36,423 nt of DNA from an uncultured Synergistales bacterium. GTDB lineage: Bacteria; Synergistota; Synergistia; Synergistales; Aminobacteriaceae. Location: positions 1 to 36,423 of the forward strand of contig CAJOGI010000012.1 of assembly GCA_905234075.1 (NCBI GenBank), read 5' to 3'. Shown here one piece after another: positions 8,023 to 11,331 of the stretch (positions are counted from its first letter, which is position 1; every line of letters begins with the position of its first letter). A model generated the notes under the pieces. That model did no database searches and had not been told where the DNA came from. It saw only the letters and a list, made by a program, of their open reading frames with translations. Made by a program: the position numbers and the translations under genes.

Positions 8023-8150
8023 AATTATTTATTCAGTATCTCATTATTAACTTGTGAGCGCGTAAATGTAATGATAAAATTTTTCAACGCTAGCAAAATT
8101 TTTTTATGTTAAAATATTTTAATTCCACTCATAAATTTTTCAGAAGAAAA

Positions 8151-8219
8151 TTTTTTTGCAACTACGTTTACACCTACAGAAAGTTTAAAAATTTTTAATA
8201 CCCTCAAAAATTTATAAAG
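8151..8219 (+). repeat. Interspersed ~69-bp intergenic element, copy 2
   Basis: T7, GCAACTAC, eight bases, CTAC, then the 42-base A/T-rich tail with an AAAAATTTTT core and AAAAATTTATAAAG end. It is nearest to the copy at 34186-34253: both share TTTTGCAACTAC and TTTACACCTACA. It sits in the 357-base divergent spacer between iorA and the HEPN-S1-ankyrin gene, ending 116 bases before that gene's ATG and in its sense. The rest of the spacer holds only a weak iorA promoter and the A-tract array. Confidence 0.8.
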
Positions 8220-8324
8220 AAAAAATTTTTAATAAGTCTTCAAATTTTTTTCGCGTCAAAAATTTTTTATCCATGTCAAAATTTTATTGAATATATTAAA
8301 ATTTTAATCACATCAAAAATTTCA
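8186..8324 (+). repeat. Array of phased A/T tracts upstream of the HEPN-S1-ankyrin gene
   Basis: A-run/T-run junctions fall at about 8191, 8210, 8225, 8244, 8262, 8281, 8301 and 8319. Six of the seven steps are 18-20 bases, close to two helical turns. Several units share TCAAAAATTTT (at 8204, 8240, 8256, 8276 and 8313). Such spacing is expected to give intrinsically curved DNA or a row of sites for an A/T-binding nucleoid protein. The start of the array coincides with the end of element copy 2. The ribosome binding site AGGAG follows at 8323-8327. Confidence 0.6.
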
Positions 8325-8335
8325 GGAGAAAAAAA

Positions 8336-10903
8336 ATGCAAAGCAGGTTTGAATTTCTTGAGGAACAATTCCCCAAACTTGCAGGCTACGGGGAAAAAGC
8401 AGAGGAGGCGTTAAACGCTGACAGCAATATTTGCCTGCTTAATCTTGGAAGAATAGCCGAGACTGTTATAGAAAATTTATGCCGAGTAAATCATTTGAAT
8501 GAAAAATTAAAAACTTCAGAAGCCGTTGAAGAATTAGCGCGGCTTGGAGTCCTTGACGGGGACACGGAAAGAAAAATTAACTCGCTCTTAGAAATTAAAG
8601 ACGAGGCCGCAGAAGAAGAATATAATTCCGAGATGGCCTGCGCGAGACTTTTAACGACAGCTAAAGAATTATGCGAATGGTTTGTGTTAAAGCACGGCGA
8701 GAGTAAATTCAGCTTTCTTGCTGATTTATTTTTGCCCGGCCGTTTTGTGCCGCCGCTTGCAAACTTGGCTGAGATCGGTCGCGAGGCTGAAGAAAATTTA
8801 TACTCGAACACGCGCTATTGTTTAATATGCTTGGGCGACATGGGCGAGGCTATAGTTGACTACCTAATGAACACAAATAATATTGAAACTCATGAGCGCG
8901 ATCAGATGTACAGAATTGACAGCCTCTTCACAAATTACGTCATAAATGACGAAATAAAAGACGCTCTTCATGATTTAAGAATGGCGCGTAATAAAGCAGT
9001 CCATGAACGTTACGACAACACCTACACTTCAGAAGAAGAAGGAAAAAGACTGCTCGATGAAGTCTTGAAATTATGCGAATGGCTTTTCAAACTTATTTTG
9101 AAGCCGGGCTATATAGTTAAAGGCAGAATTTCTGACATTGAAGAAAATTTTATATCAGTATTAATCGGCGCAATCCCGGCAACGGTGCCTTTTGAAGAGA
9201 TCCCTTTGAAAGAGGACGGCACTATAAAAAATTCGTACGTAAAGGGAAAAAAATATATTTTCAAGGTCGTTGAGAAAACGAGCGAAAAAATTACGTTAAG
9301 CCTGCGCCAAGCCGACGAAGATTATAATTTGAACGTTGCCCAGCAATATTCAAAATATAAAATCGGTCAGGACGTTCGGGTTTTAATTAAGAGAATTAGT
9401 AATTCTTCGGGTGCACTTGTCGAATTGAAAGACGGCCTTCTTGCTCAAATACCGCCGTCGGAAATCGGCCGAAGGCTTTATGATTATGACGACACGAACG
9501 AAAAGCAGATTAAATATGAAGTTACAGCGCGCGTAAAATGGTTCAGCCAAACTCAATATCCGCCGATGCTGCTTTCAGTTAAAGATATTGAAAACGAACA
9601 CAAAGCCGAAGCAGAACGCTCAAAGCCTACGAAGTGGGAGCAGATAAAAATTCCGCCGAAAAAAAATTCTATGCGTGATGTTAATTTCAGAACATTCGTA
9701 AAAACTGCGACGTTTGACAAAATTCTTGAGGCCCTCGACAGCGGAGCAAACCCTAACGCAAAAAATAATAACAAAACCACAACTTTAATGAACGCTGCTC
9801 AGTCCAATCACGACCCGAAAGTTGTCGGGGCACTTTTGGACGCAGGGGCGGAGCTTGAAGCAAGAAATCATAAAGGCAACACCGCTCTTCACTTTGCCGC
9901 AATGGAAAATATTCCGGCGGTAGTTAAATTACTTATTGAAAGGGGCGCGGACATTGAAGCCCTTAACCACGATAAAAAAACGCCGCTCGACTACGCACGG
10001 AGCAATAAAAATCTGAACGGCACGGAAATAATAAGCCTCCTCACGCCGCAGTCAGAAAAGCCGGAAAAGCCGGAACCTCAAAAAATTTCCGGGTCGGCGA
10101 AAAATAAAAAGCATAAGCCTAAAATTCCTGACGATATAAATTTCCGTCTGCTTGATTTATGCAAGTCCGGAACGGAGCAGGAAATTTCAGCGTTAATAGA
10201 AGACGGAGCAGATGTCAACGCAGTCAGCCACAACAAGACAACGCCGTTAATGACAGCTGCGCAATATAATTCACTCGAAGTAGTTCAGCTCCTGTTAAAT
10301 CATCAAGCCGACGTGAACGCAAAAAATAAAATGGGCAACACAGCTCTTCACTTTGCCGCGATTTATAACAATCCCGAAGTCGTCAGCGCACTTATAAACG
10401 CCGGTGCTGCTGTTGATGCTGTAAATGACAAAGGAAAAACTCCGTTCGATTCCGCGCAGGATAATCAAAGATTAAAGGGGTCTGAAGCTATGGAACTTTT
10501 AGAGAAAAAAGAAATTAATATTGATTTTAAGAAAGAATTTTTAAGAATATGCCGCTCCGGCAGCGAAGAAAAAATTTTGCAGGCTATTAACGCCGGCGCG
10601 AAAATAAATTCAAAGAACAAGGCCCTTTCTACCGCATTAATGTTCGCCGCAAGGGACAACACCGCCGAAGCCGTAAATATTCTCGTGAAGTCCGGCGCAT
10701 ACGTTGACGCTCAAGATATTTACGGGAACACCGCGCTGATTTATGCGGCGTATCACAATAATGAAGACGTTGTAGAAATTCTCATCGATGCGGGAGCGGA
10801 CGTGAGCCTTACAAATACTTCGGGGTACACGGCTTATGACTACGCGAAACAAAATTACAGGCTTGCGGACACGGAGGCGTTAAAAAAATTAATAGGTGCT
10901 TGA
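8336..10903 (+). CDS. Tandem HEPN/DUF4145-like, S1-like and ankyrin-repeat protein
   Basis: 855 residues, no named family recognised for the whole. Two homologous N-terminal helical domains (about 1-118 and 145-254) both end in an LCEW segment and resemble DUF4145/HEPN domains. The second has R218-N-K-A-V-H223, which fits the HEPN RNase motif (Arg, four to six residues, His, with Asn after Arg); the first has lost it. Two S1/OB-like domains follow (about 257-327, ending ITLSLRQ, and 340-420, ending MLLSVKD). Then come three ankyrin blocks of about 125 residues (from 446, 598 and 730), each with GADVNAxxxxxxTxLMxAA and TALHFAA-type repeats and a closing NxxLxxxE helix. No signal peptide or TM segment, so it is cytoplasmic. 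AGGAG lies nine bases before ATG 8336. Domain logic suggests RNA recognition or cleavage with a protein-binding scaffold; this is inference. Confidence 0.85.
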   Translation: MQSRFEFLEEQFPKLAGYGEKAEEALNADSNICLLNLGRIAETVIENLCRVNHLNEKLKTSEAVEELARLGVLDGDTERKINSLLEIKDEAAEEEYNSEMACARLLTTAKELCEWFVLKHGESKFSFLADLFLPGRFVPPLANLAEIGREAEENLYSNTRYCLICLGDMGEAIVDYLMNTNNIETHERDQMYRIDSLFTNYVINDEIKDALHDLRMARNKAVHERYDNTYTSEEEGKRLLDEVLKLCEWLFKLILKPGYIVKGRISDIEENFISVLIGAIPATVPFEEIPLKEDGTIKNSYVKGKKYIFKVVEKTSEKITLSLRQADEDYNLNVAQQYSKYKIGQDVRVLIKRISNSSGALVELKDGLLAQIPPSEIGRRLYDYDDTNEKQIKYEVTARVKWFSQTQYPPMLLSVKDIENEHKAEAERSKPTKWEQIKIPPKKNSMRDVNFRTFVKTATFDKILEALDSGANPNAKNNNKTTTLMNAAQSNHDPKVVGALLDAGAELEARNHKGNTALHFAAMENIPAVVKLLIERGADIEALNHDKKTPLDYARSNKNLNGTEIISLLTPQSEKPEKPEPQKISGSAKNKKHKPKIPDDINFRLLDLCKSGTEQEISALIEDGADVNAVSHNKTTPLMTAAQYNSLEVVQLLLNHQADVNAKNKMGNTALHFAAIYNNPEVVSALINAGAAVDAVNDKGKTPFDSAQDNQRLKGSEAMELLEKKEINIDFKKEFLRICRSGSEEKILQAINAGAKINSKNKALSTALMFAARDNTAEAVNILVKSGAYVDAQDIYGNTALIYAAYHNNEDVVEILIDAGADVSLTNTSGYTAYDYAKQNYRLADTEALKKLIGA

Positions 10904-10928
10904 CAAAAAAAAGAGCTAAGTATAAAAT
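10900..10928 (+). promoter_or_regulatory. Promoter of the tRNA operon
   Basis: TTGACA (10900-10905), 17 bases, TAAAAT (10923-10928): a near-consensus housekeeping promoter about 18 bases before the first tRNA. The -35 box overlaps the stop codon (TGA 10901-10903) of the preceding gene. Confidence 0.8.
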
Positions 10929-10946
10929 TCTCTTCGTGCTTACGCG

Positions 10947-11021
10947 GGGCGGATAGTTCAGCGGTAGAACACCTGCTTTACACGCAGGGGGTCGTAGGTT
11001 CGAACCCTGCTTCGCCCACCA
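10947..11021 (+). tRNA. tRNA-Val (anticodon TAC)
   Basis: Cloverleaf: acceptor GGGCGGA/TTCGCCC, D arm GTTC/GAAC, anticodon stem CCTGC/GCAGG with loop TTTACAC (anticodon TAC), T arm GTAGG/CCTGC with loop TTCGAAC, and an encoded CCA at 11019-11021. It is the first of four tandem tRNA genes. Confidence 0.97.
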
Positions 11022-11039
11022 GGATTTGACGACACATGC

Positions 11040-11117
11040 GGGGTCGTAGCTCAGTCGGTTTAGAGTGTCGGCCTGTCACGCCGAAGGTCGCGAGTTCAAG
11101 TCTCGTCGGCCCCGCCA
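11040..11117 (+). tRNA. tRNA-Asp (anticodon GTC)
   Basis: Acceptor GGGGTCG pairs with CGGCCCC; D stem GCTC/GAGT; anticodon stem TCGGC/GCCGA with loop CTGTCAC (anticodon GTC); T arm loop TTCAAGT; encoded GCCA end. Second gene of the tRNA cluster. Confidence 0.97.
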
Positions 11118-11153
11118 TTAAAAATTTATTTAGTCGTTAGGTCTGGAACGTTG

Positions 11154-11229
<76 letters not shown>

Positions 11230-11256
11230 TGAAAAAGTTAAACAAGTTTGCGAATT

Positions 11257-11331
11257 GCGGAAGTAGCTCAGGGGTAGAGCACAACCTTGCCAAGGTTGGG
11301 GTCGCGGGTTCAAATCCCGTCTTCCGCTCCA
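11257..11331 (+). tRNA. tRNA-Gly (anticodon GCC)
   Basis: Acceptor GCGGAAG/CTTCCGC, D stem GCTC/GAGC, anticodon stem CAACC/GGTTG with loop TTGCCAA (anticodon GCC), T arm GCGGG/CCCGT with loop TTCAAAT, encoded TCCA end. Last gene of the cluster, followed by a terminator. Confidence 0.97.

What the first reader, a model, noticed from the sequence alone, without database searches (positions are those of the whole stretch)
8336..10903. HEPN-HEPN-S1-S1-ankyrin protein: candidate new RNA-targeting effector
Seen: two homologous N-terminal helical domains, the second with R218-NKAV-H223 and the first with this site lost; two S1/OB-like domains; three ankyrin blocks of about 125 residues. Known: HEPN domains (DUF4145 belongs to this superfamily) with an Arg-x(4-6)-His motif are metal-independent RNases common in toxins, CRISPR effectors and anti-phage systems; S1 domains bind RNA; ankyrins bind protein. 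Inference: one chain joins a possible RNase, an RNA-binding module and a recognition scaffold. An active/inactive HEPN pair on one chain could form the two-fold site. The gene sits beside a tRNA operon and behind an unusual curved-looking leader.
Basis: partly seen in the sequence, partly recalled or inferred. Interest (0 to 1): 0.78.

Follow-up and report, generated by a model that had tools for sequence, protein, structure and literature searches.

The report
Genus-specific HEPN–S1–ankyrin RNase candidate
A rumen bacterium of the Synergistales carries a stable chromosomal gene for a probable RNA-cutting enzyme (one intact and one dead HEPN domain) fused to ribosomal-S1-like domains and ankyrin repeats; the combination looks new and is kept throughout one genus, but it is not in an anti-phage setting and no activity has been tested.

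Summary
The 855-aa ORF at 8336-10903 has tandem HEPN (DUF4145) domains, two bS1-like S1/OB domains and three ~125-aa ankyrin blocks. R218-N219-x-A221-x-H223 is invariant in 29/29 homologues; the aligned His is absent from the first HEPN in all 29. AlphaFold2 gives two five-helix HEPN folds whose best solved matches are HepT-type HEPN toxins. The closest sequence kin of the HEPN unit is the N-terminal HEPN of type I restriction subunit HsdR. The family occurs in 37 of 43 genomes of one ruminant-gut Synergistales genus, in none of 145 other Synergistota searched and in no viral contig. It is syntenic (24 of 31 loci keep divergent iorA) and under purifying selection (dN/dS 0.08 to the nearest sister): a vertically inherited core gene, not a mobile defence or toxin-antitoxin gene. 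The tRNA operon and A-tract leader are local features. Canonical RNA-contact residues are lost in both S1 domains, so 'S1 binds RNA' is doubtful. Best reading: a latent chromosomal HEPN endoribonuclease, probably active through HEPN2-HEPN2 dimers and controlled by the pseudo-HEPN and ankyrin array. Activity, substrate and trigger are unknown. New architecture of a known superfamily.

The parts
8336..10903 (+). Gene for the 855-aa HEPN-HEPN-S1-S1-ankyrin protein
   Evidence: family in 37 of 43 genus genomes; dN/dS 0.084 against closest sister
8336..8701 (+). HEPN1 (residues 1-122): pseudo-HEPN, R-x4-H site lost (K88...E93 at the aligned positions)
8711..9097 (+). HEPN2 (residues 126-254): intact HEPN, DUF4145
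   Evidence: (HsdR model, E 7e-26)
8987..9004 (+). R218-N219-K-A221-V-H223 predicted catalytic motif at the end of HEPN2 helix 4
   Evidence: R, N, A, H invariant in 29/29; helix 205-223
9098..9307 (+). S1 domain a (residues 255-324)
   Evidence: RNA-contact aromatics/His mostly absent
9347..9589 (+). S1 domain b (residues 338-418)
   Evidence: missing in several diverged members
9677..10060 (+). Ankyrin block 1 (residues 448-575)
10136..10513 (+). Ankyrin block 2 (residues 601-726), in the part whose length varies between species
10514..10900 (+). Ankyrin block 3 (residues 727-855), a terminal block kept at the very C-terminus of most complete members
   Evidence: no amino acid change to closest sister

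Best explanation
It is a cytosolic, vertically inherited HEPN endoribonuclease of one Synergistales genus. An HsdR-type HEPN domain was duplicated; copy 1 lost its catalytic residues and copy 2 kept them; bS1-like OB domains and an ankyrin array were added. Likely mechanism (inferred): the enzyme is latent; the ankyrin array binds a protein partner or signal, the pseudo-HEPN and S1 domains position or restrain HEPN2, and activation lets HEPN2 domains of two chains come together to form the composite R-N-H site that cuts RNA without metal, as a regulated stress or RNA-turnover enzyme. Shown: domains, predicted fold, motif conservation, loss in HEPN1, synteny, purifying selection, genus restriction. 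Inferred: RNase activity, dimer mode, gating by ankyrins, physiological rather than defence role, direction of the domain's origin from HsdR.
For: HEPN fold predicted at pLDDT 85-86 with HepT/HEPN toxins as best solved matches (probability 0.96-0.99, TM up to 0.73 of target). R218, N219 and H223 invariant in 29/29, the same R-N-x3-H pattern as the active site of TtCsm6 (PMC4748810). HEPN1 lacks the His in 29/29 and forms one side of the HEPN tree at 100/98 support, so the pair is old and stable. dN/dS 0.084 overall, 0.041 in HEPN2. iorA upstream and divergent in 24 of 31 loci; AMP-ligase downstream in 15. No relative in viral contigs; phage and plasmid records give only HsdR.
Against: No experiment. 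Foldseek E-values for the HEPN model are not significant on their own (0.6 and above); support rests on probability and TM-score plus sequence. The HEPN1-HEPN2 arrangement is not confidently predicted (pTM 0.58). About 20% of DUF4145 HEPNs lack the motif and some HEPNs are thought to act without catalysis (PMC3710099). Six genus genomes lack the gene, so it is dispensable. Nothing identifies ligand or substrate.
Confidence: 0.5

Rival explanations
1. Abortive-infection or phage-defence effector: the ankyrin array recognises a phage protein and releases HEPN2 to cut host or phage RNA.
For: Kin of the HsdR HEPN and of PADLOC candidate PDC-M16A; HEPNs are common in defence (PMC3710099); ankyrin middle varies in length between species; single-HEPN relatives fused to ankyrin or to OB plus membrane segment exist.
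Against: Conserved chromosomal position beside metabolic genes, near-universal in the genus, low dN/dS including in ankyrins, absent from plasmids, phages and viral contigs at the sensitivities used.
Confidence: 0.2
2. HEPN1 and HEPN2 of one chain form a mixed two-fold site that is active with a single R-N-H set.
For: The two domains are adjacent homologues on one chain; HEPN1 is retained under purifying selection (dN/dS 0.16).
Against: Described HEPN RNases juxtapose two intact motifs (PMC4748810); the pair is not confidently packed in the model.
Confidence: 0.15
3. Non-catalytic regulator: HEPN and S1 domains bind RNA or protein without cleavage, as proposed for the inactive HEPNs of MtlR-type repressors.
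For: HEPN1 is already dead; S1 contact residues are lost; MtlR precedent (PMC3710099).
Against: Invariance of R, N and H in HEPN2 across sequences down to about 32% identity is what catalysis predicts.
Confidence: 0.2
4. Toxin of a toxin-antitoxin pair.
For: HEPN toxins are the best fold matches.
Against: No small partner gene beside it; iorA is divergent and downstream genes are housekeeping or tRNAs; size and architecture are unlike HepT-MntA.
Confidence: 0.03

Closest known systems
N-terminal HEPN (DUF4145) of type I restriction subunit HsdR (NCBIfam PRK11448, PADLOC PDC-M16A)
   Same: Nearest relatives by sequence; same N-terminal start (xSxFxFL...FPxL...G..AE) and RN.AVH motif
   Different: No nuclease or helicase domains here; HEPN duplicated, first copy dead; S1 and ankyrin attached
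HepT HEPN toxins (MntA-HepT, e.g. PDB 5yep, 7bxo)
   Same: HEPN fold and R-x4-H motif
   Different: Single small HEPN with a nucleotidyltransferase antitoxin; none here
Csm6 HEPN RNase
   Same: R-N-x3-H active site; weak fold match (PMC4748810)
   Different: CARF sensor for cyclic oligoadenylate; no ankyrin or S1
RNase L
   Same: Ankyrin repeats plus HEPN (KEN) RNase in one chain (PMC3710099)
   Different: Pseudokinase and 2-5A ligand; no S1; no specific sequence kinship shown; analogy only
Ribosomal protein bS1 tandem S1 domains
   Same: Two consecutive S1 domains matching bS1 at E 3e-23, also by fold
   Different: Canonical RNA-contact aromatic/His positions mostly lost

Membership tests
HEPN superfamily (DUF4145 branch) | Sequence match to PF13643 above the curated cut-off | tested here: met
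   36.9 bits against 23.1 for residues 1-255
HEPN superfamily (DUF4145 branch) | Five-helix HEPN fold | tested here: met
   matches to HEPN structures (predicted model)
HEPN superfamily (DUF4145 branch) | R-x4-6-H motif | tested here: met
   HEPN2 29/29; HEPN1 0/29
HEPN superfamily (DUF4145 branch) | Metal-independent RNase activity through a dimeric composite site | not testable with these tools
   needs biochemistry or a complex structure
Type I restriction HsdR | Nuclease and SF2 helicase domains; hsdM/hsdS neighbours | tested here: not met
S1 domain family (bS1-like) | S1/OB fold and sequence match | tested here: met
S1 domain family (bS1-like) | RNA-contact residues (aromatic pair and His; defined from my own knowledge of PNPase/bS1 S1 domains) | tested here: not met
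   His position is Pro in 20/29 (domain a) and 26/26 (domain b); aromatics mostly absent
Anti-phage defence system | Patchy, mobile distribution or defence-island context | tested here: not met
Toxin-antitoxin system | Adjacent cognate antitoxin gene | tested here: not met
RNase L | KEN-type HEPN with pseudokinase and 2-5A-binding ankyrins | tested here: not met
   no kinase domain found

The most novel reading that the evidence does not exclude
A bacterial, non-mobile counterpart of RNase L in logic: an ankyrin receptor array gates a HEPN RNase built from one dead and one live HEPN, serving as a core stress or innate-immune switch of a gut bacterial genus.
Probability: 0.2. Interest if true: 0.7.

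Novelty: new variant of a known kind. Interest (0 to 1): 0.45.

Why it matters
DUF4145 HEPNs are catalogued mainly in restriction and conflict systems (PMC3710099). Here one appears to have been taken out of that setting, duplicated, split into a live and a dead copy and fixed as a core gene of a genus. If active, it would be a natural pseudo-HEPN/HEPN RNase with a protein-recognition array, and would make the role of a dead HEPN copy directly testable.

Tried and rejected
Mobile or phage origin: phage, plasmid and viral-contig searches gave only HsdR or nothing. tRNA-operon link: that cluster is present only in window and closest sister and has its own promoter-like site. Leader as a conserved element: the count of A-tract sites varies from 0 to 15 between members; Rfam finds only tRNAs. 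HEPN kin among solved structures by sequence: none. A weak second DUF4145 hit in the genome (C18, E 0.33) belongs to a protein encoded next to a helicase-type restriction gene and is not a paralogue. An empty-site test was not possible: three genomes without the gene or with only a distant relative have other genes beside iorA. The literature search covers open-access papers only.

Full report
OBSERVATION. The ORF at 8336-10903 (+) encodes 855 aa. Pfam finds DUF4145 (two stretches when residues 1-255 are scanned alone, E 4e-9), S1 and ankyrins above their cut-offs. A profile of 29 homologues matches bS1 across residues 248-415 at E 3e-23, so both S1 domains are real. The three ankyrin blocks are 126-129 residues long and 39-46% identical to one another.

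HEPN DOMAINS. HEPN1 and HEPN2 align over their whole length with each other and with the N-terminal HEPN of HsdR from Subdoligranulum and from another Synergistales; NCBIfam's HsdR model matches residues 143-254 at E 7e-26. AlphaFold2 gives five main helices for each (pLDDT 84.7 for 428 aa, 86.1 for 258 aa). The best high-probability solved matches of the pair are HEPN proteins, chiefly HepT-type toxins (probability 0.96-0.99; TM 0.54-0.73 of the target), with E-values that are not significant on their own. R218, N219, A221 and H223 are identical in 29 of 29 homologues, down to about 32% identity. At the aligned HEPN1 positions the R is mostly K and the H is never H. In a tree of 78 HEPN domains all HEPN1 fall on one side of a branch with 100/98 support, so the live/dead pair is old and has been kept. 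TtCsm6 uses the same R-N-x3-H residues in a composite site made by dimerisation (PMC4748810).

S1 AND ANKYRINS. In both S1 domains the positions that in RNA-binding S1 domains carry two aromatics and a histidine (from my own knowledge of PNPase and bS1) are mostly other residues; the histidine is proline in 26 of 26 for domain b. RNA binding is therefore an open question, and a protein- or ribosome-contact role is possible. Five diverged members show no S1b and one shows neither S1 domain, while the tandem HEPN and the ankyrins are constant in members that are complete. The middle of the ankyrin array varies greatly in length and holds acidic, proline-rich repeats in some species; a terminal block of about 125 residues is kept at the end of most complete members.

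DISTRIBUTION AND CONTEXT. The window belongs to a Synergistales genus known mainly from ruminant-gut assemblies (titles of related records). The tandem-HEPN family is in 37 of 43 genomes of that genus, one of them very diverged, and in none of 145 other Synergistota, where only two single-HEPN, HsdR-like matches occur. A scan of 2.9 million viral contigs found no relative. Of 31 loci, 24 hold iorA upstream in divergent orientation, most with iorB, a CoA-ligase and ACT-domain genes behind it, and 15 hold an AMP-dependent ligase downstream, mostly followed by lgt and an HtrA-type protease (neighbours named by me from reading their sequences). Three of the other seven loci simply end at the gene. 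Against the closest sister dN/dS is 0.084 overall and 0.041 in HEPN2. This is the pattern of a core gene. The tRNA cluster of the window is shared only with the closest sister and has its own promoter-like site at the gene's end. The A-tract leader is not conserved.

MECHANISM. Shown: predicted fold, motif, loss of motif in HEPN1, age of the pair, selection, synteny. Inferred: RNase activity, inter-chain HEPN2 dimer, gating by ankyrins and pseudo-HEPN, physiological role. The models do not settle how HEPN1 and HEPN2 pack (pTM 0.58 alone, 0.71 with S1).

KNOWN KINDS. HEPN membership is met on sequence, fold and motif; activity is untested. It is not HsdR, not a toxin-antitoxin pair and not in a defence context. 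The 2013 HEPN survey lists DUF4145 fusions to restriction, helicase, TIR and other modules, an S1 fusion for a different HEPN family, and ankyrin with HEPN in eukaryotes (PMC3710099); I found no description of this combination, within an open-access library only.

VERDICT. Interest 0.45.

Noticed in passing
window 10900-11331; L040 3339-3474; L048 9600-9752: In three separate genomic settings the gene lies 44-77 bp from a tRNA gene on the same strand (tRNA-Val, tRNA-Gly-CCC, tRNA-Arg); probably rearrangement at tRNA loci.
   Followed up: partly
L070 7332-8204 (-), L071 6895-7758 (-), L072 5357-6238 (+), L125 3135-3947 (-): A second genus family: single HEPN with intact RN-x-NAH motif, a tRNA_anti-like OB domain and a C-terminal hydrophobic (membrane-like) segment.
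   Followed up: partly
L124 3499-5085 (-); L061 10689-11333 (+): Single-HEPN proteins fused to ankyrin repeats; the second lies directly downstream of a tandem-HEPN family member and has only a remnant repeat.
   Followed up: partly
window 8040-8335: A-tract-rich leader (repeated AAAATTTTT) differs in length from that of the 95%-identical sister genome; looks like a lineage-specific low-complexity stretch.
   Followed up: partly
L046, L051, L061 ankyrin middles: In-frame acidic/proline-rich minisatellite-like linkers of very different length between ankyrin blocks.
   Followed up: no
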